A stretch of DNA of 64,000 nt from Agrobacterium vitis (lineage in GTDB: Bacteria; Pseudomonadota; Alphaproteobacteria; Rhizobiales; Rhizobiaceae). Shown piece after piece: positions 18,476-40,615 of the stretch. How positions within the stretch are numbered: the first letter of the stretch is position 1; each line of letters starts with the position of its first letter. The stretch covers positions 372,001 through 436,000 of the forward strand of contig NZ_CP118260.1 of assembly GCF_013337045.2 (NCBI RefSeq), in the 5' to 3' direction. Below the pieces are notes generated by a model. It did no database searches and was not told the origin of the DNA. It worked only from the letters and a program-made list of their open reading frames with translations. A program made the translations under genes and the position numbers.

Positions 18476-19840
18476 TCAGGCCACCTTGCATCCGTCGATA
18501 AACACGGCAGAGATATTGGCGCGCGATGCCGTAAAGACGATTTTCTGCAGCAGGGTCTCCGTCATTTCATCGCTCTCGTAGAACCGCACCGTGCCTTGGG
18601 CCGCCTGCGGATCAATGACGATGGCATCGAAACGATAGCCCGGGGCAAATTGCCCGATGGGGAGATCCAATGCCTTGCCGCCGCCAGCGGTGGCGATATG
18701 GAAGGCGTGGCGAAAGTCGATGCGGGCCTTGGCGCCGCTTGCGCGCTTTTCCGGCGGGAGGCCCGGATCGACGCCGGTTTCCAACATGCGGGAGACGAGA
18801 ATGGCGGCGCGCATATTGTCGAGAAGCGAAGCGCTCGGTCCACCGGAAATATCGCTGCCCATCCCGACATGCAGACCCTTTTCCAGGGCAGCGCGCAGGG
18901 GAAAGACCGCACCGGCGAAATAGCCATTGGAGAGCGGGCAATGCGCCACTGCCGCCTGTCTGAGCTTGATCAGATCCATATCATCCGCAGTCAGCAGATT
19001 GGCATGGGCCAACATGCTGCGGCGGGTGAGAAGGCCGAAACGATCAAGGCTCATCGCATCCGTCATGCCGTGGCGCGAGAGCACATAGGCATGTTCCCAA
19101 TCGCTTTCCGAACAATGGGTCTGCACATGGCAGCCGCAGTCCCGTGCCATCGCACCCAGCCCTTCCAGCGTCGCATCCGTGCAGGCCGGAATGAACCGTG
19201 GCGTCACCACCGGCCAGACGCGGGACGCTGTGTTATCCGGATGGGTGCTGATATAGTCGATCAGCGCTTGTGTTCCCTGCAAAGCCGCATCCGGTGAGGC
19301 GTCCCGGTAATAGTCCGGGCATTGCTCTACATTGTCCATGGCGACCTTGCCGATCAGGGCGCGCTGACCTTTTTCCAGGCAGGTATCGACCAGAACGCGT
19401 GTCGCATCCTGGTGAATGGTGGAGAAATACAGCGCCGTGGTCGTGCCATTGGCCAGCAGATCATCGACCAGCAGGCCATAGACGCGCTTTGCATAGGCTA
19501 GGTCCGCATAGCGGGCTTCCAGCGGGAAAGTATGGGCATGCAGCCAGGTTTCAAGCGGCACATCCAGGGCGGTGCCAAGCTGCGGATATTGTGGCGCATG
19601 CACATGGCAATCCACCAGACCCGGCAGGAGCAGGCAGCCCGCCGGTAGACGTGAAAGCCGTCCTTGGCGGTCGGCATCGGCTTTCGCCAATCCGTATCCT
19701 TCATCGTCGGGGTGCAGCACGGAGAGTATCACGCCATCCGCATCGATGGCGATCAGGCAATCAGTCAGCACATCGATTTCACCAGCCACCGGCGCATGAA
19801 AACCGCTGGCGATCAGCACCGTGTCCCTGAAATCACTCAT
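18476..19840 (-). CDS. guaD: Guanine deaminase
   Basis: A 454-residue amidohydrolase. The segment LLPGLVDCHVHAPQYPQLG (HxH at residues 79-81) is characteristic of guanine deaminase, as is THCSESDWEH with its metal-binding histidine; the aspartate of GMGSDISGG completes the site. It would convert guanine to xanthine, or act on a related purine. ATG 19840 lies 19 bases after the upstream oxygenase gene stop; a TTG at 19867 is the alternative. It is the last gene of a leftward operon led by a nucleoside-type ABC transporter, supporting a purine-salvage or purine-catabolic role. Confidence 0.88.
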   Translation of the reverse strand: MSDFRDTVLIASGFHAPVAGEIDVLTDCLIAIDADGVILSVLHPDDEGYGLAKADADRQGRLSRLPAGCLLLPGLVDCHVHAPQYPQLGTALDVPLETWLHAHTFPLEARYADLAYAKRVYGLLVDDLLANGTTTALYFSTIHQDATRVLVDTCLEKGQRALIGKVAMDNVEQCPDYYRDASPDAALQGTQALIDYISTHPDNTASRVWPVVTPRFIPACTDATLEGLGAMARDCGCHVQTHCSESDWEHAYVLSRHGMTDAMSLDRFGLLTRRSMLAHANLLTADDMDLIKLRQAAVAHCPLSNGYFAGAVFPLRAALEKGLHVGMGSDISGGPSASLLDNMRAAILVSRMLETGVDPGLPPEKRASGAKARIDFRHAFHIATAGGGKALDLPIGQFAPGYRFDAIVIDPQAAQGTVRFYESDEMTETLLQKIVFTASRANISAVFIDGCKVA

Positions 19841-19859
19841 TGCTGGTGCGCGGTATTGG

Positions 19860-20708
19860 TCATGCAACGGCTTTCAGCGACGTTCCATAGGTCACGCCCT
19901 TTTCCTTCAGCCATCGGCGGTAGGCGATGGAGGTTGCGTCAGCACGGGTGGGGATTTCCGAGCGCGGCTCCATCGGCAGCAGAACCGGGCGCTGGTTTTC
20001 AAGGATGATCCGGTCTTGCAGGAAAATCAGCTGCTGGAACTGGATCAGCGAGGCGGTGGTCGATTGATCATCGATCAGATACATGATCGGATGGGCGCGG
20101 CAGCGATCCGGGTCCAGGGGTTGGACGAACAGGCAGATCACATCCCAGCGGCTGTCAGAATTCGGACAGGTCTTGTAGAGCAGCGTCGTGAAGGGTGTCA
20201 TCACCCGGTAGATATAGTGGGTCATCAATCCGTCCGTGGCGGAAAGGGCCGCTTGCGGCTGGAAGAATTGGCAATTGGTCGCCCAGACCTCATCGACGTC
20301 GCGGCGGATTTCCACATTATAGTGCTCGACTTCCGTATGCGGTTCGGAGCCGAGAATATCGGTATGGACGAAGGGAAAATGCGCCATGTCGAGAAAGTTT
20401 TCGACGATCCGCAGGCCTGATGCCTTCACGGTGACAGCACCGCAGGGCACGATGCGACGATCCGGCTCATCGGCTTCCTCAATGGGGAAAAGCTCCTTGT
20501 CCGGGCTGCCGAGCGTCGTCCAGATATAGCCGTAGCGCCGCCGGATTGGCAGGTTGTTTTCCTGCGCTTTCACGGTAACGTCACCGTCCTCGGTGCGGGT
20601 CACGGCGAGATCAATGCCCAGCAGCCGGTTGGCGGATAGACCATAGGGAATGAGCGTTTCGGTATCGATGGGATACCATTGATCGAGGCTTGTTTTGTCG
20701 ATTGCCAT
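19860..20708 (-). CDS. Rieske-less oxygenase catalytic subunit, NdmC-like (paralogue 1)
   Basis: A 282-residue ring-hydroxylating-oxygenase-type protein. The mononuclear iron site is present: N104, D107, H110 and H115 in ENFLDMAHFPFVH, with D232 (LQDRIILEN) as likely third ligand. The N-terminal domain keeps the opening Rieske-domain strands (DQWYPIDTETL) and resumes at YGYIWTTLG, but the loops carrying CxH and CxxH are missing, so it cannot bind its own Rieske cluster. NdmC of the caffeine pathway has the same defect and borrows a Rieske centre from NdmD. The likely donor here is 26250-26942. ATG 20708 follows AGGGAGA. Placed between the BMP transporter and guaD. Confidence 0.85.
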   Translation of the reverse strand: MAIDKTSLDQWYPIDTETLIPYGLSANRLLGIDLAVTRTEDGDVTVKAQENNLPIRRRYGYIWTTLGSPDKELFPIEEADEPDRRIVPCGAVTVKASGLRIVENFLDMAHFPFVHTDILGSEPHTEVEHYNVEIRRDVDEVWATNCQFFQPQAALSATDGLMTHYIYRVMTPFTTLLYKTCPNSDSRWDVICLFVQPLDPDRCRAHPIMYLIDDQSTTASLIQFQQLIFLQDRIILENQRPVLLPMEPRSEIPTRADATSIAYRRWLKEKGVTYGTSLKAVA

Positions 20709-20734
20709 CACTGGGTTTCTCCCTGCATCCTTGG

Positions 20735-21670
20735 TCAACGAAGGCTGCGGTAATAGGGCAGGCCAAGGGCGGCTGGTGCCGCCATCAACCGGCGCATGCG
20801 CTGCCAGGCGATCACAGGCACGATAATGAAGGCGATGGTTCCGGCATAGGGCAGCATGGACAGAAAGGCCGGAGCAATCGGCCAGCCGCGCGCCTGTCCG
20901 ACGAAGCCGAGCGCGGTGATGAAGCCGAATAACAGGCCGGAGAGAGCCGCCGGAATAGGCCGGTAGCCAGCAAAGATCACCAGCGCCACCGCGATCCAGC
21001 CGCGCCCCGCCACCACGCCATCCGACCAGGATGGCACGAAGGCCAGAACCAGATAGGCACCTGCGCCTGATGCAAGCGCCGCGCCTGCGCAGACATAGCC
21101 AAAGCGGATGCGATGGACCGGAATGCCCGCCGCATCGGCAGCCGCCGGATTTTCGCCAACGGCGCGCATATTGAGCCCGTGGCGGGTGCGAAACATCAGA
21201 AAGGACAGGCCCAGCGGCAGGATGATGTAGATCAGGTAGACGAGAATATTCTGGCTGAAAAAAGCCGGTCCGAGGATGGGGATCTCCGAGAGGATCGGCA
21301 TCTTGACGCCCTGGAATGTCGCCGGAACCGGCATGCCGGAATAGGATTTACCAATCGTTTGGGCAAGGCCGGTGCCGATCAAGGTCAATGCCAGCCCGCA
21401 GAGCACCTGATTGGCCCTGATCGTCACAGTCGCCACCGCAAACACCATGCCGAACAAAGCGCCGATAGCGAGCGCCGCCAAAAAGCCGAGGATGGGGGAG
21501 GGAAAGGCGGTGACGGTGGCAACAGCGGTGATCGCTCCCATGGCGATCAGCCCTTCGACGCCAAGATTGACGACGCCGACCCGCTCGGCCAGCACTTCGC
21601 CCATGGCCGCCAGCGCCAAGACGCCGCCAGCCAGAAAGGCGGTGGTCAGAAGTCCGGTCAACAGTTCCAT
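20735..21670 (-). CDS. BMP-family ABC transporter permease (NupQ/YufQ-like)
   Basis: A 311-residue BPD_transp_2 permease with about eight to nine hydrophobic segments and the family segments VNLGVEGLIAMGA and VGENPAAADAAGI. Partner of the permease at 21682. Such pairs serve importers of nucleosides and purines (guanosine transporter YufNOPQ, RnsBACD). A GAAAGGA upstream of ATG 21670 supports the start. Confidence 0.88.
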   Translation of the reverse strand: MELLTGLLTTAFLAGGVLALAAMGEVLAERVGVVNLGVEGLIAMGAITAVATVTAFPSPILGFLAALAIGALFGMVFAVATVTIRANQVLCGLALTLIGTGLAQTIGKSYSGMPVPATFQGVKMPILSEIPILGPAFFSQNILVYLIYIILPLGLSFLMFRTRHGLNMRAVGENPAAADAAGIPVHRIRFGYVCAGAALASGAGAYLVLAFVPSWSDGVVAGRGWIAVALVIFAGYRPIPAALSGLLFGFITALGFVGQARGWPIAPAFLSMLPYAGTIAFIIVPVIAWQRMRRLMAAPAALGLPYYRSLR

Positions 21671-21681
21671 CGCGGGTCCTT

Positions 21682-22728
21682 TCAGGTCTTGTCGCGGACG
21701 ATGCGGTAATGGGAAATCTCGTCGCCGATGGCTGTCAGGAAGAGGATGAGGCCGGTGATTGCCAGCACGGTCGAGGTTGTCAGCCCCTGCGTTTGCAAAA
21801 TGATGCCCGAATTGAGGATGAAGGCCATCAGCGCGCCCGCAAGGATAACCCCAATACAGGACCCCCGCGCCAGCACCGCGACCATGATGCCGAGATAGCC
21901 GTAATTGTTGGAAATGCCGCCTTGAAGACGATGCACTGTTCCGGTGACTTCCAACATGCCCGCCAGACCGGCAATTGCCCCCGATAGCAGCATGACGGTG
22001 ATCAGATGACGGCGGGCGGCAATGCCCGCATAGTTTCCGGCCTGCGGATTGGAGCCGATCAGCCGCACCTCATAACCCCAGCGGGTAAAGGCCAGCAGCG
22101 CCGCCATGGCCAGCGCGAGAAGCACTGCAATTGGCAGGCCCCAATGCACAAGACCCCAGAATTCCGGCATTTCGGCCTTGATGCGCGGAGTGGCCGAGTT
22201 GGCGACGCCGCCGCGTTCGCGCCACGCATCCGTGGAGACATAATAAACCATCAGGATGGCGACGAAATTGAGCAGCAGCGTGGTGATCAGCTCGTTGACA
22301 TTAGCATAGGCACGGGCAAGGGCCGGAATGACGATCCACACGCTTCCGCCAAGCGCTCCGGCGAAAAACATCGCCACCAGGCTCCAGCCTTCCGGCAGCG
22401 GCACAAAAAGACCAACGGCACTGGCGGCGAAGGCGCCTGCGTAAAACTGCCCTTCCGCTCCGATATTCCAGGCGCCGATCTGTTGCGCGACCGTGACGGA
22501 CAGGCCGGTCAGGATCAGCGGGATAACCAGAAGGCCGAGATCTTCCAGGCCGAAACTGGAACCGAGCGAGGACGAAACCACCTGAATGCCAAGGTTAACA
22601 GGGCTTTTCCCCGCAATAGCCAGAATGACACCCGCGATCACTAACGCCAGCGCAATAGCCGCCACCCGTGCGCCAAGGGCAGCAGTGGGCGTGGCTGAAG
22701 GGAAGCGTTGCAGGCGAAGACTAGCCAT
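21682..22728 (-). CDS. BMP-family ABC transporter permease (NupP/YufP-like)
   Basis: A 348-residue permease with about ten hydrophobic segments. Diagnostic segments are WNIGAEGQFYAGA and GSNPQAGNYAGI. It overlaps the ATPase gene by 8 bp and is followed by its partner after 11 bp. AGGAGG is 9 bases ahead of ATG 22728. Confidence 0.88.
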   Translation of the reverse strand: MASLRLQRFPSATPTAALGARVAAIALALVIAGVILAIAGKSPVNLGIQVVSSSLGSSFGLEDLGLLVIPLILTGLSVTVAQQIGAWNIGAEGQFYAGAFAASAVGLFVPLPEGWSLVAMFFAGALGGSVWIVIPALARAYANVNELITTLLLNFVAILMVYYVSTDAWRERGGVANSATPRIKAEMPEFWGLVHWGLPIAVLLALAMAALLAFTRWGYEVRLIGSNPQAGNYAGIAARRHLITVMLLSGAIAGLAGMLEVTGTVHRLQGGISNNYGYLGIMVAVLARGSCIGVILAGALMAFILNSGIILQTQGLTTSTVLAITGLILFLTAIGDEISHYRIVRDKT

Positions 22729-24316
22729 GATGCGTGCCTCCTGCCAACTGACCCGGCTGAAGCTGTCGCCCGCCCATCATCAGGCCGATCTGCTCGATAT
22801 CGGTGCTGTCATTCTCGACGATGCCCATGATCCGGCCTTCGTAAAGCACGGCGATGCGGTCGGAGAGGTTCAGCAATTCTTCAAGCTCCTCCGAGATCAG
22901 TAGGATACCGGCGCCTGCATTGCGCAGGTCAACGATATAGCGCAGCATGGTGTTGATCGCCCCGACATCCAGCCCCCGGCTGGGATAGGCGGCGACCAGA
23001 ATTTTCGTGGCGATCCGCATTTCGCGCCGCGCCACCAGCCTTTGCTGGTTGCCACCCGATAGATTGCGGATTGGCATGGCGAAATCCGGGATGGCGACCT
23101 CTGCGACGCTGGCAATGCTGCGGGCCAGCGCCTTGGCGGCGGAGGGGCGAAACAGTCCGCCAACAGTGACCGGCGGTTTGCCATATTCGCGCATCACGGC
23201 ATTGACGGTGATCGACAGCCCCGGTGCCAAGCCGCTTTGTAGCCGGTCTTCCGGGATATGGCCGATGCCGCGCCGCACGAAATCAGCGGCATTTGCGGGA
23301 CCAACCGCTTCGCCGTCGATTTCGATGGTGCCGGAAGCGATGGGCCGCGTGCCGGTCAGGACCTGCGACAGTTCACGTTGGCCATTGCCTGCTACCCCGG
23401 CAATCCCGAGGATTTCGCCTGCACGCAGATCAAGGGAAATATCGTGCAAGGTCTGGCGTCCGCTATCGTCCAGCGCCGTCACTGTGCTGACCCGCATGAC
23501 AGGAGCAGACGATAGCGCGGCGGCACCCTGCGGACGGCCCCGCATGTCGGCCAGCACGATATCGCGCCCGACCATCAGCCGCGCCAGCTTGGCCGGGCTG
23601 CAATCGGCGGAAAGCTCGGTGCCGACCTTTTGCCCGCCGCGCAGGATCGTCACCCGGTCGGAAATTTCCAGCACTTCATCGAGCTTATGGGAGATGAAGA
23701 TCACCGCATTGCCGGTGGAGGCGAAATCGCGCAAGGCCTTGAACAGCTCGCGTGCTTCAAGCGGTGTGAGGACGGCGGTTGGCTCATCAAGGATCAGCAC
23801 GCGAGCCTTGCGGGCGAGAACCCGCAGGATCTCCACCCGCTGCTGTTCACCTGTCGAAAGCTCGGTGATCCGCGCCGAAGGCTTGACCTGAAGATTGAAC
23901 CTGGCCGCAAGCTCTGCGGTGCGTTCCTCCAGAACCGAGGCTGAGGCACGGCGTGGCGTATCGCTCCAGCCGAGATGAATGTTTTCCGCCACGGTGAAGG
24001 CATTCACCAGCTTGAAATGCTGGTGGATCATGCCGATGCCTGCGGCAATCGCCTGTTGCGGCCCGGTAAATTGCCTTGCATAGCCGTCGATGATGATCTC
24101 GCCCGCATCCGGTTGGTAAATGCCGGTCAGGATATTCATCAGTGTCGATTTTCCAGCGCCATTTTCCCCCAGCAGCGCGTGGATTTCACCGGGCATGACT
24201 TCAAGATCGACATCGCGATTGGCGATAACGCCGGGGAAATATTTGGCAATGCCTTTCAACTGGACGAGAGGGGCTGCCCCCGTCGGCACTGTATATTTCG
24301 CAGGATGTTCATTCAT
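22721..24316 (-). CDS. BMP-family ABC transporter ATPase with two nucleotide-binding domains (NupO/YufO-like)
   Basis: A 531-residue double ATPase. Domain 1 has Walker A GENGAGKST, signature LSTGEQQR and Walker B VLILDEPTAVLTP. Domain 2 lacks a normal Walker A but keeps the signature LSGGNQQR and a degenerate Walker B region (ILVAAYPSRGLDVGA), as is usual for this family. ATG 24316 is used; a GTG at 24325 is in frame. It energises the nucleoside/purine-type importer. Confidence 0.9.
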   Translation of the reverse strand: MNEHPAKYTVPTGAAPLVQLKGIAKYFPGVIANRDVDLEVMPGEIHALLGENGAGKSTLMNILTGIYQPDAGEIIIDGYARQFTGPQQAIAAGIGMIHQHFKLVNAFTVAENIHLGWSDTPRRASASVLEERTAELAARFNLQVKPSARITELSTGEQQRVEILRVLARKARVLILDEPTAVLTPLEARELFKALRDFASTGNAVIFISHKLDEVLEISDRVTILRGGQKVGTELSADCSPAKLARLMVGRDIVLADMRGRPQGAAALSSAPVMRVSTVTALDDSGRQTLHDISLDLRAGEILGIAGVAGNGQRELSQVLTGTRPIASGTIEIDGEAVGPANAADFVRRGIGHIPEDRLQSGLAPGLSITVNAVMREYGKPPVTVGGLFRPSAAKALARSIASVAEVAIPDFAMPIRNLSGGNQQRLVARREMRIATKILVAAYPSRGLDVGAINTMLRYIVDLRNAGAGILLISEELEELLNLSDRIAVLYEGRIMGIVENDSTDIEQIGLMMGGRQLQPGQLAGGTHHG

Positions 24317-24347
24317 TCTCGGCACACCGGCATGAGAGACTGCGAAG

Positions 24348-24369
24348 GGCCGGGCATCATCGCCCGGCC
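24348..24369 (-). other. Intercistronic hairpin between binding protein and ATPase genes
   Basis: GGCCGGGC and GCCCGGCC form an 8-bp all-GC stem with a 6-base loop just after the binding-protein stop. There is no T tract. Such hairpins in ABC operons usually stabilise the upstream message and keep the binding protein more abundant than the ATPase. Confidence 0.55.
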
Positions 24370-24389
24370 TCTATATTGCGTCGGGTGCT

Positions 24390-25502
24390 TTAAAGCCCCG
24401 TGACGCCTTCCACCGACCAATCCCAATTATAAAGCTCGAGTTCGGTCATCTTCTGGCCCTTGGCCACCCGCACGGCACCCTTGGCGTCCTTCAATTCGCC
24501 GACAAACGGCGACCAGCCGCCGAGGATTTTCGTGCGCACGTCATCCGCCGCCTTGCCGACTTCGGCGGGAACCTTGGCTCCCCAGGTATCGCGGTCAACG
24601 CCAGCGCCCATCGCGAAGATGCTTTCCGAAGGCGACCATTCGCCTGCCAGCCGCTTGCGCACCTGATCGATATAGAACTCCTTGAAGTCTATAATGATCG
24701 AGGACACATAGGAATTGGGGCCATAGCGGCGGATGTCGGTGTTCCACATCGCAGCCCAGACGCCGCGTTTTTCAGCAACCTGGAGATAGGCGGCTTCATC
24801 CATGATGCCGAACAGGAAGTCACAGCCATTGTCGATCAGCGCGGTGCCAGCCTGGGCTGCGGCCTGCGGATCAAACCAGGAATTGATGGTGATGGTCTGG
24901 CAGGTGGCATTGGGGTTGACGGTGCGCGCCCCCATCAGGAAGGCATTGGTCGAGGCATAGACCGAGGCAACCGGGAAGGAGGCGACGTAACCGAGTTTGC
25001 CGGTTTTCGACAGATGCCCGGCGGCGACGCCGACCACATAGGTCGGATACCAATGGGCCATGTAGTACCAGCCGAGATTGTCCATCGTCACATGGCCATT
25101 GCATTCCATGAAGGCGGTGTCTTTGGCGCGGCGCACCACGTCATGCAGGAAGTCGCCTGTCGAGGACGTGTCGAAGATCATATTCGCGCCTTCCGACACG
25201 AATTGCCGATAGGTGCGGGTGGCATCCGCTGAATAGGGGACGTTCTCGACCTCGAGGATCTTCTTCAGCTTGGGGAATTTTTCCTTTACGGCGATAACAC
25301 CCTGATGGTGCGACCAGGTCCAGCCTTCATCCGTCACCGGGCCGACATGGCCGAAGCCGATCACGGCGTCCTCTTCCTTTATAGCAGGCAAGGCACTTGC
25401 GGCTGCGGCGGTGCGCAACATGCCGGGAAGCGCCAGCGAGGCGCTGCCGGCTGCTGCCATGTTGAGAAAGCCGCGACGGGAAAGGCTGCGCAGGTCGATC
25501 AT
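24390..25502 (-). CDS. BMP-family ABC transporter substrate-binding protein (Tat signal)
   Basis: A 370-residue BmpA/Med-family binding protein. Its N-terminus is a twin-arginine signal (SRRGFLNMAAAG, arginines 9 and 10) followed by a hydrophobic stretch ending near AAAAS. The mature domain has IGFGHVGPVTDEGWTWSHHQG and FDTSSTGDF. Family members bind nucleosides, purines and similar ligands. ATG 25502 has GGGGG five bases upstream, better than the in-frame ATG at 25514. First gene of the leftward operon 25502-18476. Confidence 0.9.
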   Translation of the reverse strand: MIDLRSLSRRGFLNMAAAGSASLALPGMLRTAAAASALPAIKEEDAVIGFGHVGPVTDEGWTWSHHQGVIAVKEKFPKLKKILEVENVPYSADATRTYRQFVSEGANMIFDTSSTGDFLHDVVRRAKDTAFMECNGHVTMDNLGWYYMAHWYPTYVVGVAAGHLSKTGKLGYVASFPVASVYASTNAFLMGARTVNPNATCQTITINSWFDPQAAAQAGTALIDNGCDFLFGIMDEAAYLQVAEKRGVWAAMWNTDIRRYGPNSYVSSIIIDFKEFYIDQVRKRLAGEWSPSESIFAMGAGVDRDTWGAKVPAEVGKAADDVRTKILGGWSPFVGELKDAKGAVRVAKGQKMTELELYNWDWSVEGVTGL

Positions 25503-25868
25503 TGGAACCCCCATATGTTTTTGTTGAACTGGTTTTGTCGAACTCTACCGGTTGGAAAGCGGCGATCCGCATCCACCTGCCGTCCTTTCTGACGCAACAA
25601 CCGTGCCAGATGGTGACGTTCAACGGCCGATGCTTCAGCATCGACATTGGTAGGACGACGTCATACACGCTGGGTTGTTCACCGCGCTGATGTTCACCCC
25701 ATTCCAATCGGCTTTGACCTTTTCAAAACGCTGGTGTTCCGCATAGTCGAAAAAAATCGATCAAGACGATGCGTAAAAGGCAACATCTAGGCTGAAGAAA
25801 ATGCTTGTAAGCCTGCTTCTCCTGACGCTAGACTGAATAAAAATCAGGCATGCACAAGATTTAATCTT
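25503..25868. other. Divergent control region of the purine-type cluster
   Basis: About 366 bases between the leftward transporter operon and the rightward Rieske operon. It should hold both promoters and the target of the cluster's LysR protein. I saw no purine-riboswitch core and no confident operator; the A-rich stretch 25748-25800 is the likeliest rightward promoter area. Confidence 0.4.
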
Positions 25869-25964
25869 ATGCGTTTGAAACGGTCAATCGGAGACGAAAT
25901 ATTGCGCAGGATTGAGCCTGAGGTTGAGCCGAAAAATGATGTACCAGCAATGGTGGATCTGTGA
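25869..25964 (+). CDS. Possible 31-residue small ORF coupled to the next gene
   Basis: ATG 25869 opens a 31-codon frame (begins MRLKRSIGDEILRRIEPEV) whose TGA overlaps the next ATG as TGATG. There is no clear ribosome-binding site and no known family. The overlap is the only support, so this may be a leader peptide or chance. Confidence 0.25.
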   Translation: MRLKRSIGDEILRRIEPEVEPKNDVPAMVDL

Positions 25965-26197
25965 TGAGCCTGACGGTCAATCTGGTGTTCGAGGGAAATT
26001 TCAACTGCCAAAGCTTCCTGAGTTTTGCCCGCCATCGCGCTGGCAGGCTTGATATCGGCATTGATGTCGAGGCTTGCAGCGAAAACCGCGTTGCGGTTTG
26101 CGTCATCGGGCAGGAGGCCTTGGTCGATATGTTTGAAATGGCCTGTAGCCTCGGCCCGGCAGACTGCATCGTGTGGGATGTCCGGCGGCTTTCGTGA
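25964..26197 (+). CDS. Acylphosphatase-fold small protein without catalytic residues
   Basis: A 77-residue protein. Its pattern fits the acylphosphatase fold: V-x-L-V-F-x-G at the start, SFLSFARHRAGRLDI for the first helix, VAVCVIG for the central strand, and LGPADCIVWDV for the closing G-P-x-x-x-x-V segment (G64-P65). The catalytic arginine of the family motif GxVQGVxFR is replaced (G11...F18-L19), and the catalytic asparagine falls at about A37. It is therefore probably not an enzyme but a binding or assembly protein. GGTGG precedes ATG 25964 (GTG 25961 is alternative). It lies 52 bp upstream of the Rieske gene in the same operon. Homology is inferred by eye. Confidence 0.5.
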   Translation: MSLTVNLVFEGNFNCQSFLSFARHRAGRLDIGIDVEACSENRVAVCVIGQEALVDMFEMACSLGPADCIVWDVRRLS

Positions 26198-26249
26198 TGG
26201 CACAGGTTTGAGAGTGCGAGACAGGCAGTTTTTGAAAGGTGAAGGGGTC

Positions 26250-27574: not shown

Positions 27575-27627
27575 CGATAGGACAGAGCCGGATCTCACCA
27601 TTCTGTCCATCAGAGGAGTTCATGCCG

Positions 27628-30377: not shown

Positions 30378-30470
30378 CATGTTGCCTTTTGCGCATCACT
30401 TGCGTCGAAAAATGCCGTCTATTCGAAACATGTGCAGTTTGCGAACCTCACTCGGAAACGAGGGATCACC

Positions 30471-31576: not shown

Positions 31577-31589
31577 GGCCGATGTCCCC

Positions 31590-33170: not shown

Positions 33171-33213
33171 AATTTGCATGCCCTGAAACGGGAATACCAC
33201 CCTGGAGATGAAC

Positions 33214-34608
33214 ATGACTTCGAGCGCAATGATCGTCACCGCCGACACTCTGTTGACCATGGATGCGAAAAACAGCGTCATTTCTGATGGTGCCGTTGCC
33301 ATTGAGGACGGTCGTATTCTGGCGGTCGGCGCGCTGGAGAGGGTGAAAGCCAGCCATCCGGCTCTGGCGGTCAAGCGGATAGACAATGCCCTGCTGATGC
33401 CGGGGCTGATCAACGCCCATGCCCATTCCGGCTTCCTGCGCGGCACGGCGGAACATCTGCCGGTCTGGGACTGGCTGACCATCCATATCAACCCGATGCA
33501 CCGCGTGCTTCTGCCGCATGAAGCCGAGGCGGCGTCCTTTCTGTGCTATGCCGAATCTGCGCTGTCCGGCACCACGACTGTTGTCGATATGTGGCGCTAT
33601 ATGGATGGCAGTGCCCGGGCCGCACAGTCCATCGGCACGCGCCTGGTTGCCGTACCCTATGTCGGGGAGCACCCCGATTACAATTATTTCGAAACGCTCG
33701 ACAATAACGAGGCGATGATTGAGACCTGGCACCGCAAGGCGGGGGGCCGCATCAATGTCTGGGTCGGGCTGGAACATCTGTTTTATGCCGATGCAGCTGG
33801 CCAGCAGCGCGCTATCGCCATGGCCAAACAGTATAACACCGGCTTTCACACCCATTGTTCGGAAGCGGAAGTCGAGGTTGGCGGCTTTATCGACACCTAT
33901 GGCAAGCGCCCCATGCATGTTCTGGAAGATCTGGGGTTCTTTGAGGCGCCGCGCACCATGCTGGCCCATGCCGTCTGGCTGGATGAGGCGGAAATCGAGC
34001 TGATTGCCAGATACAATGTCTCGGTCGCCCATAATCCGGTGTCAAACATGAAGCTTGCTTCCGGCATTGCACCGATTGCCGATATGCTGGCGGCTGGCAT
34101 TCCGGTCGGTCTTGGCACGGATGGCGAAAAGGAAAACAACAATTTCGACATGTTCGAGGAGATGAAGACCGCCTCCCTGCTCGGCAAGCTGCGCCACCGC
34201 GATGCTTCTGCCATGGATAGCTGGCAATGCCTGCGCATGGCGACCATTCTCGGAGCCAAGGCCATCGGTCTTGAGGATGAAATCGGCTCGATCGAAGTCG
34301 GGAAACGTGCTGATATCATTGCCGTGCGCACCGATACGCCGCGTATGACGCCGCTGTTTGCCGAGGGCCCCTATTTCAATGTGCAGCACAATCTCGTCCA
34401 CGCCGTGCGCGGCGGCGATGTCGCCATGACCATGGTGGATGGTCAGGTGATCGTGGAGGATGGCGTGCTGAAGACCGGTGACATCAAGGCGATCATTGCC
34501 GATATCCATGGCATGGCGCCTGCACATTTTGCCCGCCGCGCCGCATGGCTTGCCGAAAACGGCGGCGGCACCAAGCAATGGATCAGCGAAGCGGAGGGTG
34601 TCAAATGA
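33214..34608 (+). CDS. Amidohydrolase, TRZ/ATZ family (MTA/SAH deaminase-like)
   Basis: A 464-residue amidohydrolase with H69-x-H71 (NAHAHSGFLRG), HTHCSEAEVE, AHAVWLD and the metal aspartate in GLGTDGEKENNNFDMFEEM. This is the layout of 5-methylthioadenosine/S-adenosylhomocysteine deaminase and of triazine hydrolases, which remove amino, alkylamino or chloro groups from N-heterocycles. ATG 33214 is chosen because GGAG at 33203-33206 is too close to ATG 33208. ATGA overlap with the following oxygenase subunit ties it to that reaction. Confidence 0.87.
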   Translation: MTSSAMIVTADTLLTMDAKNSVISDGAVAIEDGRILAVGALERVKASHPALAVKRIDNALLMPGLINAHAHSGFLRGTAEHLPVWDWLTIHINPMHRVLLPHEAEAASFLCYAESALSGTTTVVDMWRYMDGSARAAQSIGTRLVAVPYVGEHPDYNYFETLDNNEAMIETWHRKAGGRINVWVGLEHLFYADAAGQQRAIAMAKQYNTGFHTHCSEAEVEVGGFIDTYGKRPMHVLEDLGFFEAPRTMLAHAVWLDEAEIELIARYNVSVAHNPVSNMKLASGIAPIADMLAAGIPVGLGTDGEKENNNFDMFEEMKTASLLGKLRHRDASAMDSWQCLRMATILGAKAIGLEDEIGSIEVGKRADIIAVRTDTPRMTPLFAEGPYFNVQHNLVHAVRGGDVAMTMVDGQVIVEDGVLKTGDIKAIIADIHGMAPAHFARRAAWLAENGGGTKQWISEAEGVK

Positions 34609-35471
34609 AGACGACCGACCGGGTCGCGCTTGACGATTGGTATGCGATCGCCACTGCCGGGGATCTCACGACCCAGCCGGTGAAAACAAAGCTGCTGGGC
34701 CAGCAGATCGAATATCGGCTGAACACGGATGGTGCGCCGCTGGTGCGCGAGGCGGGCCTGGACGGCTGCTATGGACCGGCCTTGCCCTTCCAGGTCAAAT
34801 ACGGCTGCCTGTTTACCACGCTTGGCACACCGGGAAAGGACATTGTCGATATCGTGGAAGCGGAAGAGGCGGATCGCCGGTTCGTGCTGTGCGGTTGGGT
34901 GACGATGCGGGCATCGGGTCTGCGCGTCGTCGAGAATTTCCTCGATATGGCGCATTTTCCCTTCGTGCATACCGATATTCTCGGGTCTGTGCCGCATACC
35001 GAAGTGCCACACTATCTGTCGGAAATTCGCCGCGATGTGGATGAGGTCTGGGCGACCAATTGCACGTTTTTCCAGCCGCGCATTGCCGCGACCGAAAGCG
35101 ATGGCGATTTCGTGCACCTGACCTACCGGGTGCCATCGCCCTTCGTGGTGATGCTCTACCGCGTCTGCCCCACATCGCCGAGCCGGCTCGATGCGATTGC
35201 CCTGTTCATCCAGCCGATGGAAGACGGGCTTTGCCGCGCCCAGCCGGTCATGTATCTGGTCGATACCGTCTCGCCGCATAAGGCACTCCTCAATTTCGAG
35301 CAGGTGATCTTCCTTCAGGACCGGATCATCGTTGAAAACCAGCGTCCTTTGCTGCTACCGCTTGAGCCGCGCGCGGAAATCCCGACAAGGGCCGATTCCT
35401 CCTCCATTGCCTATCGCCGCTGGCTGAAGGAAAAAGGCCTCCGCTTCGGCACGACCGCAGGAGCCGGATGA
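34605..35471 (+). CDS. Rieske-less oxygenase catalytic subunit, NdmC-like (paralogue 2)
   Basis: A 288-residue paralogue of 19860-20708. The iron-site residues are N111, D114, H117 and H122 (ENFLDMAHFPFVH), with D239 in FLQDRIIVEN. As in its paralogue, the Rieske fold starts (DWYAIATAGDL) and ends (KYGCLFTTLG) but the cysteine/histidine loops are gone. The two proteins share long identical blocks around the iron site (PHTEV, RRDVDEVWATNC) and at the C-terminus (AYRRWLKEKG). Two catalytic subunits with a single Rieske donor suggest two successive or position-specific oxidations. ATGA overlaps on both sides. Confidence 0.86.
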   Translation: MKTTDRVALDDWYAIATAGDLTTQPVKTKLLGQQIEYRLNTDGAPLVREAGLDGCYGPALPFQVKYGCLFTTLGTPGKDIVDIVEAEEADRRFVLCGWVTMRASGLRVVENFLDMAHFPFVHTDILGSVPHTEVPHYLSEIRRDVDEVWATNCTFFQPRIAATESDGDFVHLTYRVPSPFVVMLYRVCPTSPSRLDAIALFIQPMEDGLCRAQPVMYLVDTVSPHKALLNFEQVIFLQDRIIVENQRPLLLPLEPRAEIPTRADSSSIAYRRWLKEKGLRFGTTAGAG

Positions 35472-38400
35472 TGGAGGTGCTGGCCCCGAAGACGCTGGAC
35501 CTGGCCATCGCTGAGGCGCAGCAGCCGGGCGCGCGCATCGTCGCCGGAGCGACGGCGTTGCAACTGGAATGGGCGAAGGGGCTGACGAAGCCGGAGCGTA
35601 TGATCAGCCTCAGCGGGCTTTCCGCTTCGCTATCGGGTATTGTGGAGGCCGATGGGCTCATTCGCATCGGTGCGATGACGACGCTTGCCAATCTTTTGGC
35701 ATCGCGTGATCTTGCTATGGCTTTGCCCCTGCTTCATGCCGCCGTCAAATGGGTGGCAAGCCCCGCTGTGCGCACTCTCGCCACGCTTGGCGGCAATATA
35801 GCGGGGCGGGCCGGTTGCCTTCTGCCTGCGCTGCTGGCGTTGGACGCTGTTCTGGAATTTGCCGCCTATCCTCACGGGTTTAGCGTGTCGCTGGAACATT
35901 GGCTGGCCGACGCACACCAGCCTGCCGCGATCCTGACGGCTATTTTGATCGCGCCCCAGCAACCACAGGAGTGTTTCACATTCCGCAAGATCGGTTTGAG
36001 AACAGCCTTCAGCCCCAGTGTCATCAATGTGGCAGGTCGCCTCATAGCGGGTCGGAGCGGTGCCGATGCGGTGCGGTTTGCCGTGGGCGGCGGCATTGTG
36101 CCGCCCACTCGTCTGCGTGAGGCCGAAGCGCTAGCGGCTTGTGCTGCCGAGGACGGAAGCGCTTGGGCGCAGGTTCATCCCTGCTTGGTTGAGACAATGC
36201 ATGTGCCGGGCGACGCATTTCGCTCTGCTGCCTATCGTCGCCACGTTGCGGCGAATGCCTTGACCTTCGGACTCGGCGGCTTTCTGCCCGGACGCATCCC
36301 GGACTGTCCTGTCGCCTTACCTATCGAGTTTGCCCGCCCACCGGAAGGCGAACTGGCGCTTGAGCGCATGCGGATGCCAGCTCGCTGGCATATTCGCCCG
36401 GATGTGGAGCAGAAGATCCGCGGCGAACTGACCTATCTAACCGATCACCGGGAGGAGGGCATGCTGGTCGGCCGCATCCTGCGCGCCGGGGTCGCCCATG
36501 CGCGGATCCTGTCCATCGACACAGCGGCGGCAGAAGCATTGCCGGGTGTTGTCGCTGTTGTAACGCATCGCGACGTGCTGGGGCTGAATGCGTTTGGCAT
36601 CGTGGTCCAGGATCAACCGGCACTATGCTTCGACAAGGTGCGCCATCGTGGCGATCCGGTCGCAGGGGTAGCCGCAGTTGATGAAGAGACAGCGGAAAGA
36701 GCGTTGTCGTTGATCGAAGTCCGCTACGAACCGCTGCCTATGGTGGATGACATGGAAGCGGCGCTGGAGCCAAAGGCAGTGCTGGTGCACGCAAGCGGCA
36801 ATCTCCAGCGGGAAATTCTCTTTACCCGTGGCGATAGTGTCCAAGCCTTCGCGAAGGCCGACCATATCGTCGAAGAAGTCTATATCACGCCCCGCCAAAT
36901 GCACGGTTTCATGGAGACCGAGGGTGGCTATGCATATGTCGGGGCGGATGGACGGCTGAACATATGTGCTGGCGGCCAGCATGGCGGGCGTGACCGGCTG
37001 CAATTATCGCGTATCCTTGGCTTGGACGAAGACGATATCCGGGTGGTGACGTCGCCGACCGGCGGTGCTTTTGGCGGCAAGGACGAACTTTCTGTTCAGC
37101 CAGCGCTGGCGCTTCTGGCGCTGAAGGCAAAGCGGCCTGTCAGGCTGCATTTGTCGCGGGCAGAGTCCATGCTTGCCGGTCAGAAACGCCACCCGATGAA
37201 GATCCGCATGAAAACCGCCTGCGATGCACAAGGTGTTTTGCTGGCCCAGCAGGTCGATCTGGTGGCGGATGCGGGGGCTTACGCGTCGCTTGGCCCGAGC
37301 GTTCTGGAAACGGCGCTGGAACATGCCATCGGCCCTTATGTGGTGGGCAATATCACCACGCGGGGCCGTCTCGCCTATACCAATAACGGACTTTGCGGCG
37401 CTTTTCGCGGTTTCGGCGCCAACCAGATGACATTTGCGGTGGAGTGCCAGATGGACAGGCTGGCAGCACTGTGCGGCCTCTCGCCTTTGGAGATCTGCAG
37501 GCGCAATCTGCGACAGCCAGGCTCTCCCGGCTATTTAGGGCAGGTCGTGTCGACCAGCGAACGACTGGAAGAAATGCTGGCGGCCGCCACGGCCTCTGTG
37601 CTTTGGCGCAAGCCACAGGGGATAGGTGCCGATCAGGAGTGGATAATCGGAACCGGCATGGCGCTGAATTATCAGGGTAATGGTCTCGGATCTGTCATTC
37701 CCGATCCGGCGGCGGGGAGGCTTGCGCTGAACAAACAGGGCCTGATTGAAGGCGCATTTGGGCTGGACGAAATGGGGCAGGGGCTTTTACCGGCAATCTG
37801 CGCGGCCATTTCCGCCGAACTGGGGTGCGCGCGCCAAGATGTGCTCCCGCTTGTCGGAGATACATTGCTGGCGCTGGATTCCGGCTCCACCACCGCCTCG
37901 CGTGGCAGCCATGTCGTCTGGGCGTCGGTTCGGCTGGCCGCTCCTGAATTTCGCCTAGCAATGTGCCGTGCGGCGGCAGGACTACGTGGCTGCGACGCTG
38001 AACAACTCGTCCTGGTGCCCGGCGGTTTTGCGGAGTCCGCCAATCATAGCGACGCATTTTTGCTGTCCTATGCGGATCTGGCCGCCGCCTTGCCGGAGAC
38101 GGATTTGCCAAGCGTGACGGTGACGTTTGATTTTCCCAAGACCGATTATGCGGATGCCAATGCCCGTTATATCTTTGCCTTCGGCGCTTCGCTGGCCCGT
38201 GTCGCGGTCAGTCGGGTGACGGGTGAGGTGCGGGTGCTTGATCTTCACCAGCATTCCGCCGCCGGACCGATCATCGATCTTGCTGCCTATCTCGGGCAAT
38301 TGGAGGGCGGTGCGGTGCAAGGTCTGGGCTTCACGCTAACGGAGGATTGCCCGATGCAGGATGCAGCATATCTGACCGGCAATTTCGACAATTATATGCT

Positions 38401-38617
38401 GCCCGGCATTCAGGATGCCCCGCTCGGTCTGCATGTCTTTGCGCTTGACGATCTCGACCCCGGCGACGTGCTTGGTCCGCGCGGGGTCGGCGAACTCGGG
38501 ATCGGCGCAGTCACGCCCGCAATCGCCAATGCCATAGCGGCTGCCACCGGCTATTGGCCGCCGGTCATGCCTGTCGTGCCGGAAACGCTTCTCGCACATC
38601 TCTCGGTGTCAGCATGA
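35468..38617 (+). CDS. Xanthine-dehydrogenase-type enzyme: fused FAD-binding and molybdopterin subunits
   Basis: A 1049-residue fusion. Residues 1 to about 280 are a CoxM/XdhB-like FAD domain (VAGATALQLEWAKG, TLGGNIAGRAGCLLPALLA). From about residue 310 onward comes the aldehyde oxidase/xanthine dehydrogenase large subunit: GGAFGGKDE, GAFRGFGANQ with the substrate arginine, and RGVGELGIG with the catalytic glutamate E1009. The family hydroxylates purines, other N-heterocycles or aldehydes. The CODH-specific AYxCSFR loop is not seen. FAD and Mo modules fused while the [2Fe-2S] subunit is separate is an uncommon order. Start ATG 35468 overlaps the previous stop; ATG 35471 is equivalent. Confidence 0.88.
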   Translation: MMEVLAPKTLDLAIAEAQQPGARIVAGATALQLEWAKGLTKPERMISLSGLSASLSGIVEADGLIRIGAMTTLANLLASRDLAMALPLLHAAVKWVASPAVRTLATLGGNIAGRAGCLLPALLALDAVLEFAAYPHGFSVSLEHWLADAHQPAAILTAILIAPQQPQECFTFRKIGLRTAFSPSVINVAGRLIAGRSGADAVRFAVGGGIVPPTRLREAEALAACAAEDGSAWAQVHPCLVETMHVPGDAFRSAAYRRHVAANALTFGLGGFLPGRIPDCPVALPIEFARPPEGELALERMRMPARWHIRPDVEQKIRGELTYLTDHREEGMLVGRILRAGVAHARILSIDTAAAEALPGVVAVVTHRDVLGLNAFGIVVQDQPALCFDKVRHRGDPVAGVAAVDEETAERALSLIEVRYEPLPMVDDMEAALEPKAVLVHASGNLQREILFTRGDSVQAFAKADHIVEEVYITPRQMHGFMETEGGYAYVGADGRLNICAGGQHGGRDRLQLSRILGLDEDDIRVVTSPTGGAFGGKDELSVQPALALLALKAKRPVRLHLSRAESMLAGQKRHPMKIRMKTACDAQGVLLAQQVDLVADAGAYASLGPSVLETALEHAIGPYVVGNITTRGRLAYTNNGLCGAFRGFGANQMTFAVECQMDRLAALCGLSPLEICRRNLRQPGSPGYLGQVVSTSERLEEMLAAATASVLWRKPQGIGADQEWIIGTGMALNYQGNGLGSVIPDPAAGRLALNKQGLIEGAFGLDEMGQGLLPAICAAISAELGCARQDVLPLVGDTLLALDSGSTTASRGSHVVWASVRLAAPEFRLAMCRAAAGLRGCDAEQLVLVPGGFAESANHSDAFLLSYADLAAALPETDLPSVTVTFDFPKTDYADANARYIFAFGASLARVAVSRVTGEVRVLDLHQHSAAGPIIDLAAYLGQLEGGAVQGLGFTLTEDCPMQDAAYLTGNFDNYMLPGIQDAPLGLHVFALDDLDPGDVLGPRGVGELGIGAVTPAIANAIAAATGYWPPVMPVVPETLLAHLSVSA

Positions 38618-39099
38618 ACCTGGGCTTCACACTGAATGGCGAGCGGGTCACTTTGGAGTGCCAGCCGGACACGCGGCTCACGGCGATCTTGCGTGACAAG
38701 CTGCATCTGACTGCCACTAAGCTTGCCTGCGCTATTGGTCGCTGCGGGGCCTGTAGCGTGCTGTTGAATGGCAGGCTTGCCAATGCCTGCCTGCTGATGG
38801 CCTGGCAGATTGACGGTGCCGACATTTTTACGGCGGAAGGACTTGCCTCCCATCCATTGGGAGAGGCGGTGCGCGAAGGGCTGGCGGAGGAAACCGCCTT
38901 CCAATGCGGCTATTGCGCGCCGGGCTTTTCGCTGGCGCTGGTGGCCTTGTTTGCCGACAACCCGCAAGCCGTGGAAAAGGACATTCGCGCTGGTCTGGAG
39001 GGCAATCTCTGCCGTTGCACCGGCTATCATTCGATCATCCGAGGGGCGTTGAACGCCGCTTGCCGCATTCGCGCTGCACACACCATTTCCGGAGACTGA
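38614..39099 (+). CDS. Xanthine-dehydrogenase-type [2Fe-2S] subunit
   Basis: A 161-residue small subunit with two iron-sulfur clusters. The plant-ferredoxin-like cluster ligands are in LACAIGRCGACSV plus a later cysteine (NAC). The C-terminal four-helix cluster ligands are CGYC (QCGYCAPG) and CRC (NLCRCTGY). It passes electrons from the molybdenum site to FAD. ATGA overlap with the fused large subunit sets the start at 38614. Confidence 0.92.
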   Translation: MNLGFTLNGERVTLECQPDTRLTAILRDKLHLTATKLACAIGRCGACSVLLNGRLANACLLMAWQIDGADIFTAEGLASHPLGEAVREGLAEETAFQCGYCAPGFSLALVALFADNPQAVEKDIRAGLEGNLCRCTGYHSIIRGALNAACRIRAAHTISGD

Positions 39100-39100
39100 C

Positions 39101-40615
39101 ATGACCCTGGCACTCGACCCTATCGGCCCGAAAAGCGAGGGCGCCAAAGCCTTTCTGGCCCGCCGCCGTAAACAGATCCTGATTGGCGGGTTCTGGCGCG
39201 ATGCCGGTTCCCGGCAATGGTTCGAGACGGCTGACCCGGCCTCTGGCGAGGTTCTGGCCGAGGTTGCCGAAGGAACGATTGCCGATGTGGACGAGGCCGT
39301 GGCCAGCGCCCGTGCCGCTCTCACCTCTCAGGCATGGAAAGGGCTGACACCCTCCCAGCGCGGCAGGCTGCTGTGGAAAATCGCCGAATTGATCGACGCC
39401 CATGCGGAGGAACTGGCGGAACTCGAAACCCTCGATCAGGGCAAAAGCTTCAGGACCAGCCGTTTTGCCGAAATTCCAGCCAGCGCCGAACAATTCCGCT
39501 ACTTTGCGGGGTTCTGCACCAAGATCCTCGGCACCACCATTCCGACCTCTATCGGCTATCAGCCGCAGGGCAAGCAGATCTTTGCCTATACCACCCGTGA
39601 GCCTGTCGGCGTGGTGGCTGCGATCACCCCCTGGAATTCGCCGATGTTGATGGCGGCCATGAAGCTTGCGCCAGCGCTGGCCGCCGGTTGCACCGTCGTG
39701 CTGAAACCGGCGGAAGAAACCTCGCTGACGGCATTGCGGCTGGGCGAACTGATGCTGGAGGCGGGTCTGCCTGACGGCGTGGTCAATATCGTCACCGGTT
39801 TTGGCGAAACGGTGGGGGCGGCGCTGTGTTCCCACTCCGATGTTGATAAGGTGGCTTTCACCGGATCGACTGAGGTCGGCAAGCTGATTGTTACTGCTGC
39901 TGCCGGTAATCTGAAAAAACTGACACTCGAACTGGGTGGCAAGTCGCCTGCCATCGTTATGCCAGATGCCGATATCGCCCTGACCGTCGAGGGAATCGCG
40001 CGCGGCATCTTTAGCAATTCCGGCCAGGTCTGCGTTGCGGCTTCGCGTGTCTATGCCCATCGTTCAATTTGCGAACAGGTGGTAGAAGGGTTGTCGAAGG
40101 CGGCTTCCACGTTGCGCCTCGGTCATGGGCTTGACCCCGCCGTTGATCTGGGGCCGCTGGTCAATCGCCGTCAGGCAGACCGTGTGGCGGCCTATGTGGC
40201 AGAGGGGAAGGCAGAAGGCGCTGAAATCGCGGCGGGTGGCAGCCAGACAGGAGACACAGGCACGTTTTATGCGCCGACCGTGGTGACAGGCGTGCAGCCT
40301 GACATGCGGATGATGCGCGAAGAGATCTTCGGTCCTGTCGTGGCGGTGACGCCCTTCGATGAGGTGGAAGAGGCGCTCCTCTATGCCAATGACAGTCCTT
40401 ATGGGCTGGCGGGCAGTGTCTGGACCCGGGATCTTTCCCAGGCCCATCGTCTGGCGGCGCAGGTCAAGGCCGGGACGATCTGGGTCAATTGCCATTCCTA
40501 TTTTTCCCCTGAACTGCCGAAGGGTGGTCACCGCCAATCCGGCTGGGGTTATGAGAATGGCGCGCCGGGCCTGGAAAACTACCTGGAAACCAAAACCGTC
40601 TGCGCGTTGATTTAA
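39101..40615 (+). CDS. Aldehyde dehydrogenase (NAD(P)-dependent)
   Basis: A 504-residue ALDH. Catalytic residues: N179 in TPWNSP, E277 in LELGGKSP and C311 in SNSGQVCVA; NAD loop FTGSTEVGK. GGAGA precedes ATG 39101, which starts one base after the [2Fe-2S] gene ends. It probably oxidises an aldehyde released by the oxygenase or made by the GMC enzyme. Last gene of the run; a weak hairpin with a T tract overlaps its stop (40604-40629). Confidence 0.92.
   Translation: MTLALDPIGPKSEGAKAFLARRRKQILIGGFWRDAGSRQWFETADPASGEVLAEVAEGTIADVDEAVASARAALTSQAWKGLTPSQRGRLLWKIAELIDAHAEELAELETLDQGKSFRTSRFAEIPASAEQFRYFAGFCTKILGTTIPTSIGYQPQGKQIFAYTTREPVGVVAAITPWNSPMLMAAMKLAPALAAGCTVVLKPAEETSLTALRLGELMLEAGLPDGVVNIVTGFGETVGAALCSHSDVDKVAFTGSTEVGKLIVTAAAGNLKKLTLELGGKSPAIVMPDADIALTVEGIARGIFSNSGQVCVAASRVYAHRSICEQVVEGLSKAASTLRLGHGLDPAVDLGPLVNRRQADRVAAYVAEGKAEGAEIAAGGSQTGDTGTFYAPTVVTGVQPDMRMMREEIFGPVVAVTPFDEVEEALLYANDSPYGLAGSVWTRDLSQAHRLAAQVKAGTIWVNCHSYFSPELPKGGHRQSGWGYENGAPGLENYLETKTVCALI

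What the first reader, a model, noticed from the sequence alone, without database searches (positions are those of the whole stretch)
18476..40615. Dissected Rieske oxygenase: two Rieske-less catalytic subunits, one stand-alone Rieske protein and a GST-like partner in a purine-type catabolic cluster
Seen: 19860-20708 and 34605-35471 both keep the D-x2-H-x4-H iron site and the later Asp ligand but have lost both Rieske cysteine/histidine loops. 26250-26942 has a perfect CxH-N16-CxxH Rieske motif but no iron site. A GST-like gene is coupled to it by TGATG. Known: caffeine N7-demethylase NdmC lacks a Rieske cluster and works with NdmD (extra Rieske domain) and the GST homologue NdmE. Inference: this is a related split oxygenase in which the Rieske domain is an independent protein shared by two catalytic subunits, linked to guanine, adenine and MTA-type deaminases and a xanthine-dehydrogenase-type enzyme. 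I know of no description of this arrangement.
Basis: partly seen in the sequence, partly recalled or inferred. Interest (0 to 1): 0.88.

Follow-up and report, generated by a model that had tools for sequence, protein, structure and literature searches.

The report
Un-fused NdmCDE-type split Rieske oxygenase
A soil and plant bacterium carries a purine-linked oxygen-using enzyme whose electron-handling half and catalytic half are separate proteins, each apparently a shrunken relic of the same ancestral enzyme, together with two partner proteins; it is a widespread variant of the known caffeine-demethylase complex NdmCDE.

Summary
The two catalytic proteins (19860-20708, 34605-35471) are 43-54% identical to NdmC homologues, the GST-like protein (26942-27574) is NdmE-like, and the Rieske protein (26250-26942) corresponds to the N-terminal Rieske part of NdmD. 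In NdmD that part is fused to the reductase; here it is a separate gene. In 199 genomes drawn from the window's family, all 67 catalytic-gene matches (43 genomes) lie within 9 kb of such a Rieske gene: 31 loci un-fused, 13 fused. Predicted models indicate complementary decay: the Rieske protein looks like a whole Rieske oxygenase with a shrunken, iron-less catalytic domain; the catalytic protein like one lacking the cluster loops. No NdmD-type reductase lies in the cluster. Best reading: an NdmCDE-type oxygenase with an un-fused Rieske subunit shared by two catalytic subunits, probably N-dealkylating purines. Complex, substrate and electron donor are not shown. New variant of a known kind.

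The parts
25964..26197 (+). Small acylphosphatase-like protein (77 aa), conserved partner of un-fused Rieske genes
   Evidence: tblastn finds it in 43 of 46 un-fused loci (not L015, L068, L069); family search; PF00708 above its cut-off only in the homologue L031, below it in L029 and L030, no PF00708 match for the window protein or L008
26250..26942 (+). Stand-alone Rieske subunit (230 aa): Rieske domain plus a shrunken iron-less second domain; homologous to the N-terminal part of NdmD
26942..27574 (+). GST-like protein (210 aa), NdmE homologue, start overlaps the Rieske stop (TGATG)
   Evidence: GST_N/GST_C; 37-42% to NdmE of three loci, 44% to the S. meliloti homologue
19860..20708 (-). Catalytic subunit 1 (cat1, 282 aa), NdmC family, Rieske cluster loops missing
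34605..35471 (+). Catalytic subunit 2 (cat2, 288 aa), NdmC family, paralogue of cat1 (57% identical)
   Evidence: VanA_C 55 bits; 43-45% to NdmC homologues; alignment; tree
18476..19867 (-). Guanine deaminase, abutting cat1
   Evidence: TIGR02967 402 bits, cut-off 375
20735..25514 (-). BMP/PnrA-type ABC transporter: two permeases (20735-21670, 21682-22728), ATPase (22721-24325), binding protein (24390-25514)
   Evidence: Binding protein PF02608, nearest solved relative an atrazine periplasmic binding protein 6pi5; permeases and ATPase named from reading their translations, no family search
27508..29427 (+). Adenine-deaminase-like protein (start codon uncertain)
   Evidence: PF13382, TIGR01178 347 bits below cut-off 472
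30432..31576 (+). Two-subunit ThDP decarboxylase-like pair (sulfopyruvate/phosphonopyruvate decarboxylase-like)
   Evidence: TIGR03845 and TIGR03846/TIGR03297 below cut-off
33208..34608 (+). Amidohydrolase of the MTA/SAH or 5'-deoxyadenosine deaminase type, stop overlaps cat2 start
   Evidence: (below cut-offs)
35468..39099 (+). Xanthine-dehydrogenase-type hydroxylase (FAD+Mo subunit 35468-38617, 2Fe-2S subunit ORF 38554-39099), start overlaps cat2 stop
   Evidence: below cut-offs
39101..40615 (+). Aldehyde dehydrogenase
   Evidence: PF00171

Best explanation
It is an NdmCDE-type purine oxygenase in which the Rieske part is not fused to its reductase. The Rieske protein (26250-26942) and each catalytic protein (cat1, cat2) are complementary relics of one two-domain Rieske oxygenase: one kept the [2Fe-2S] cluster and shrank the catalytic domain, the other kept the mononuclear iron and lost the cluster loops. 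They pair, held by the GST-like subunit, so that the cluster of the Rieske protein faces the iron of a catalytic protein through the conserved Asp107 of N-x2-D-x2-H-x4-H, as happens between neighbouring subunits of an ordinary Rieske oxygenase. One Rieske/GST set serves two catalytic subunits. Electrons come from a reductase encoded elsewhere, since none of the NdmD type lies in the cluster. The likely reaction is oxidative N-dealkylation of imported N-alkylated purines: cat1 probably on a guanine-type substrate whose product goes to guanine deaminase, cat2 on a substrate handled with the MTA-type deaminase and the xanthine-dehydrogenase-type enzyme. The small acylphosphatase-like protein is a specific partner of the un-fused Rieske subunit, perhaps for assembly or docking of the electron donor. 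Shown: gene set, motifs, homology, co-occurrence. Indicated by models and profiles: complementary domain loss. Inferred: complex, electron path, sharing, chemistry, substrate, role of the small protein.
Against: No biochemical data. No complex was modelled. No NdmD-type reductase in the cluster, and 10 of 31 un-fused genomes, G000 among them, have no match (E <= 1e-20) to the separate reductase of L055, so the electron path is open; other reductase types were not searched for. G000 has three PF00970 proteins, none in the window; a full-length NdmD query finds two of them (C4:212744, 34%; C1:457512, 30%). The shrunken catalytic domain rests more on the model than on sequence (38% probability). 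The second un-fused Rieske protein of L017 has lost one cysteine ligand. A purine substrate is inferred from neighbours; the decarboxylase pair, GMC enzyme and aldehyde dehydrogenase are unexplained. L011 (20 kb) and L008 (a contig of only 8.6 kb) match none of the 16 other window proteins queried, so the set can stand without those genes nearby.
Confidence: 0.72

Rival explanations
1. The Rieske protein is a diffusible ferredoxin-like carrier, as in three-component Rieske systems, and the catalytic proteins form their own oligomer; there is no stable mixed complex.
Against: It is 230 aa with a second confidently folded domain (208 of 230 residues with pLDDT of 90 or more) and aligns over its whole length to whole oxygenases. 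The catalytic proteins lack any cluster, so a ferredoxin would have to reach the iron directly. NdmC is reported to need NdmD and NdmE for solubility (PMC10380055, passages).
Confidence: 0.15
2. It is simply NdmCDE, a 7-methylxanthine N7-demethylase of caffeine breakdown, with a second-hand reductase.
For: Family homology; purine context.
Against: The catalytic proteins of un-fused and fused loci are separate clades in the tree, except the un-fused L015, which falls with the fused ones, and a very long branch from L017. The context is guanine and 8-oxoguanine deaminases and a BMP transporter, not the N-demethylase-like and formaldehyde genes beside the set in P. caffeinilytica; fused rhizobial loci do share the BMP transporter (13 of 13) and some a guanine-deaminase-like gene (3 of 13: L073, L076, L078). 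Two catalytic paralogues.
Confidence: 0.12
3. The substrate is not a purine but a related heterocycle (pteridine, triazine, or a cytokinin-like N6-alkyladenine).
For: The amidohydrolases belong to the mixed guanine/8-oxoguanine/MTA/triazine deaminase group; nearest solved relative of the binding protein is an atrazine-binding protein; extra decarboxylase, GMC enzyme and aldehyde dehydrogenase could process a side chain.
Against: Guanine deaminase passes its curated cut-off, 8-oxoguanine deaminase passes it in L012 and L046, and a xanthine-dehydrogenase-type gene overlaps cat2.
Confidence: 0.25
4. The catalytic proteins are non-enzymatic relics.
For: They lack the cluster needed for their own turnover.
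Against: Iron ligands and the bridging Asp are invariant in 91 of 91 relatives.
Confidence: 0.03

Closest known systems
NdmCDE, N7-demethylase complex of caffeine-degrading Pseudomonas
   Same: Rieske-less catalytic subunit (NdmC), Rieske domain in another chain, GST-like NdmE; 37-54% identity part by part to homologues of the three
   Different: Rieske part is a separate protein, no NdmD-type reductase in the cluster, two catalytic paralogues, extra acylphosphatase-like gene, other genomic context
Rhizobial ndmCDE homologues (e.g. S. meliloti pSymA, L026)
   Same: Same family; two catalytic genes, GST, BMP transporter; such clusters are mentioned in print (PMC4408171)
   Different: Rieske fused to the reductase (588 aa); no acylphosphatase-like gene in 17 of 17 fused loci
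SxtT/GxtA, NdmA/NdmB, dicamba monooxygenase (whole VanA-type Rieske oxygenases)
   Same: Both halves match their two domains in sequence and model
   Different: Those carry cluster and iron in one chain
HpxD (annotated Mo-independent xanthine hydroxylase subunit)
   Same: Rieske oxygenase in purine breakdown; weak match to cat1, 28-30%
   Different: The HpxD label appears among matches to the catalytic query and, on another plasmid, to the Rieske query, so it looks like a whole oxygenase; no GST partner known to me (recalled)

Membership tests
NdmCDE | Catalytic subunit with mononuclear iron site and no Rieske cluster | tested here: met
NdmCDE | Rieske domain fused to an NADH reductase (NdmD) | tested here: not met
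   230-aa stand-alone protein; no PF00970 match and no NdmD reductase match inside the window
NdmCDE | GST-like partner (NdmE) | tested here: met
NdmCDE | C3D3E3 complex, 7-methylxanthine specificity | not testable with these tools
   needs biochemistry; reported for NdmCDE in PMC10380055 (passages)
Rieske non-heme iron oxygenase (alpha subunit) | Rieske cluster and 2-His-1-carboxylate iron in one chain | tested here: not met
   Each chain has one of the two
Rieske non-heme iron oxygenase (alpha subunit) | Two-domain fold | tested here: met
   Predicted models align end to end, with one domain reduced in each
Rieske ferredoxin (three-component systems) | Single small Rieske domain of about 100 aa | tested here: not met
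   Second folded domain, residues 129-221 of the model
Acylphosphatase (small gene) | PF00708 match over cut-off | tested here: inconclusive
   Over the cut-off only in L031 (23.7 against 22.5), below in L029 and L030, none for the window protein or L008
Acylphosphatase (small gene) | Catalytic Arg and Asn (recalled) | tested here: inconclusive
   No Arg or Asn among the invariant or nearly invariant columns of 28 rows; register to true enzymes not tested

The most novel reading that the evidence does not exclude
The un-fused Rieske subunit works as an adaptable hub. A dedicated acylphosphatase-fold protein stands in for the covalent reductase fusion by docking a housekeeping electron donor onto the Rieske-catalytic-GST complex, and interchangeable catalytic subunits plug into it. 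NdmD would then be the derived, fused form of this older modular oxygenase.
Probability: 0.15. Interest if true: 0.78.

Novelty: new variant of a known kind. Interest (0 to 1): 0.58.

Why it matters
Rieske oxygenases depend on electron transfer between neighbouring subunits. A natural enzyme in which the two halves are separate, complementary relics of the whole, with paired catalytic paralogues that seem to have arisen at least twice, would let that step be taken apart and mixed at will. It also gives a new conserved component, an acylphosphatase-like protein that tracks the un-fused form, and a testable purine-related function for many rhizobial genes annotated only as 'aromatic ring-hydroxylating dioxygenase subunit alpha'.

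Tried and rejected
Tried without result: literature links to cytokinin breakdown and pterin deaminase (PMC9513972, passages found by search terms: no occurrence of Rieske, dioxygenase or glutathione in its main text). PMC6421345 (passages) mentions Rieske only for an exported respiratory protein. NCBIfam has no match at E <= 0.01 for the catalytic proteins. A reductase partner: the candidate at G000 C4:212744 (653 aa) lies beside hydantoinase-like, flavin-monooxygenase-like and ribokinase-like genes, the one at C1:457512 beside a whole Rieske oxygenase (gene names from reading the translations); neither is linked to the system. The L055-type reductase is not clearly enriched in un-fused genomes against genomes without the system (21 of 31 against 80 of 156, Fisher p = 0.12). 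Not used: the third protein search, the third Foldseek job, two genome searches.

Rejected: that the Rieske protein is a truncation artefact (same layout in 46 loci); that the catalytic proteins are dead; that the association is chance.

Limits of the counts: the 44 family Rieske loci are the matches at E <= 1.6e-24; weaker ones (from 1.4e-22) sit in frames of 332-570 residues (one of 166) and were read as ordinary oxygenases; their surroundings were not checked. The Rieske frame of G367 (466) is unresolved. In the Rieske tree the bootstrap had not settled and long branches are present, so the order of fusion and separation is only suggested. The catalytic tree holds 92 of 95 collected proteins (L016, L056, L059 left out). 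Model A3 was built from members of these loci, so their own hits are expected; 14 of the 30 strong hits, among them the unlinked one in G113, were not in A3. Beyond the 30, 48 of 199 genomes have only weak matches (7.8e-9 and worse; 78 in all at E <= 0.001); I take these for ordinary acylphosphatases but did not test it. In L017, L055 and L056 the small gene is 1.0, 7.4 and 7.1 kb from the Rieske gene.
Full report
WHAT IS THERE. The window (G000:C2:372001-436000) is closest to Agrobacterium vitis records (94% and 93% over the Rieske protein). The described ORFs and motifs are correct. Cat1 (19860-20708) and cat2 (34605-35471) match the VanA_C catalytic domain (and KshA_C below its cut-off) and no Rieske family; the Rieske protein (26250-26942) matches PF00355 (and Rieske_2 below its cut-off) and no catalytic family; the next gene is a GST. 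Best solved relatives by sequence of both cat1 and the Rieske protein are the same enzymes: SxtDIOX/GxtA at chain positions 100-333 and 11-201, SxtT at 100-333 and 12-132. This suggests two parts of one ancestral protein.

FAMILY. Plasmid records supplied reference loci with the NdmC-, NdmD- and NdmE-like genes in a row: P. putida Tik1 (L024), Klebsiella (L027), Paraburkholderia caffeinilytica CF1 (L028). The ndm names are my assignment from gene order and the reviews; the records say dioxygenase subunit alpha, Rieske protein or PDR/VanB oxidoreductase, and glutathione S-transferase. Cat1 is 46-54% identical to the three NdmC proteins (cat2 43-45%), the GST 37-42% to the three NdmE, and the Rieske protein 39-40% to the N-terminus of two NdmD proteins (the third as annotated lacks that part). 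Reviews state that NdmC lacks the cluster, that the N-terminal Rieske domain of NdmD feeds NdmC, that NdmE is structural, that the complex holds three of each, and that ndmCDE homologues occur mainly in Sinorhizobium and Mesorhizobium (PMC4408171 and PMC10380055, passages read).

THE UN-FUSED FORM IS WIDESPREAD. In 199 genomes of the window's family (unnamed; Rhizobiaceae by the named A. vitis relatives), 43 hold catalytic genes (67 matches, E <= 1e-40). All 67 lie on the same contig as, and within 9 kb of, a Rieske gene of this clade: 31 loci with a stand-alone Rieske (frames 216-356), 13 with a Rieske-reductase fusion (591-853); none of these 44 Rieske loci lacks a catalytic gene. In 337 class-level genomes (own included), 7 others hold 9 catalytic matches, all on a contig with a Rieske match, 8 within 450 bases and one 11.3 kb away (distances read by eye). 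Among 46 un-fused and 17 fused loci examined by tblastn, a GST was found in every one. Un-fused loci include named records: Rhizobium johnstonii 3841 pRL10, R. phaseoli, Shinella, Qingshengfaniella, Methylorubrum and Novosphingobium.

A FOURTH GENE. Upstream of the Rieske gene, 25964-26197 encodes a 77-aa protein related to proteins annotated as acylphosphatase in three other loci. A search with its family (A3, 28 rows) over the same 199 genomes gives strong matches (E <= 6.1e-21) in 30 genomes, then a gap to 7.8e-9. The 30 are 30 of the 31 un-fused genomes; 0 of 12 fused-only and 0 of 156 remaining genomes have one. In G113 it lies on another contig than the Rieske gene. By tblastn it is present in 43 of 46 un-fused loci (not L015, L068, L069) and 0 of 17 fused loci. 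It is therefore a specific companion of the un-fused form; its role is unknown. An assembly or docking role is a guess.

REDUCTASE. No NdmD- or PF00970-type reductase lies in the window; other reductase types were not searched for. Three un-fused loci (L017, L055, L056) have a separate NdmD-like reductase gene next to the set, which fits the proposed electron route. A search with the L055 reductase finds no match (E <= 1e-20) in 10 of 31 un-fused genomes, G000 included; a full NdmD query finds two reductase-like matches in G000, on other contigs (34% and 30%). So the donor in the window's organism is open.

TREES. Catalytic proteins of un-fused and fused loci fall in separate clades, except L015 (un-fused, long branch, with the fused ones) and a very long branch from L017 placed outside both; cat1 and cat2 of window-type loci are sister clades (22 and 18 rows), which fits one duplication; the tandem pair of fused loci looks like a separate duplication (92 rows). 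In the Rieske tree (72 rows) the 17 fusions form one clade, with un-fused L015 as sister (87/100) and other un-fused lineages outside, which suggests one fusion event, but the bootstrap had not settled and long branches are present.

SUBSTRATE. Cat1 abuts guanine deaminase and the BMP-type transporter genes; 8-oxoguanine deaminase sits beside cat1 in L012 and L046 above its curated cut-off (600.8 and 598.5 against 532), and a related amidohydrolase follows the set in 3841 (371.6, below the cut-off). With its start at 34605, cat2 overlaps the MTA-type amidohydrolase upstream and the xanthine-dehydrogenase-type gene downstream by four bases each. An N-alkylated guanine for cat1 is my best guess; it is inference. 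Fused rhizobial loci also carry a BMP transporter (13 of 13) and in 3 of 13 a guanine-deaminase-like gene. The ThDP decarboxylase pair, GMC enzyme and aldehyde dehydrogenase remain unexplained.

IN PRINT. Searches for Rieske-less or un-fused forms, NdmC homologues and this gene context showed nothing on the un-fused form beyond NdmCDE itself and the remark on rhizobial ndmCDE homologues. These are listings with the starts of abstracts, some capped (20 of 26, 15 of 43, 15 of 22); passages were read in five papers (PMC4408171, PMC9513972, PMC12445004, PMC6421345, PMC10380055). PMC8055839, on caffeine genes of coffee-borer bacteria, was seen in listings only. The library holds open-licence papers only, and the original 2013 NdmCDE paper is known to me through the reviews. 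So I can say only that the un-fused form and the small partner were not found there.

VERDICT. Real, conserved, and a new variant of the NdmCDE kind: an un-fused Rieske oxygenase made of complementary relics, with a new small partner. Architecture well supported; complex, donor and substrate inferred.

Noticed in passing
25964-26197: Small acylphosphatase-like gene that tracks un-fused Rieske genes across genomes; not in the finding.
   Followed up: yes
L017 4718-12187: Metagenome contig with a whole Rieske oxygenase, two sets of un-fused Rieske + catalytic + GST genes, a separate reductase and the small gene side by side; one of its Rieske proteins has lost a cysteine ligand.
   Followed up: partly
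L059 8316-9548: In one draft genome the catalytic and GST reading frames are merged in frame with parts of both apparently missing; assembly error or deletion not resolved.
   Followed up: no
29286-33170: Conserved LysR-ThDP decarboxylase pair-GMC oxidoreductase block beside the cat2 genes in Rhizobium and Methylorubrum; substrate unexplained.
   Followed up: partly
53464-55434: Xylose-isomerase-like TIM barrel fused to a hydroxyphenylpyruvate-dioxygenase-like N-terminal domain.
   Followed up: no
L036 (G000:C4:207000-219000): 653-aa protein with an NdmD-like reductase C-terminus beside hydantoinase-like, flavin-monooxygenase-like and ribokinase-like genes (names from reading the translations, no family search).
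   Followed up: no
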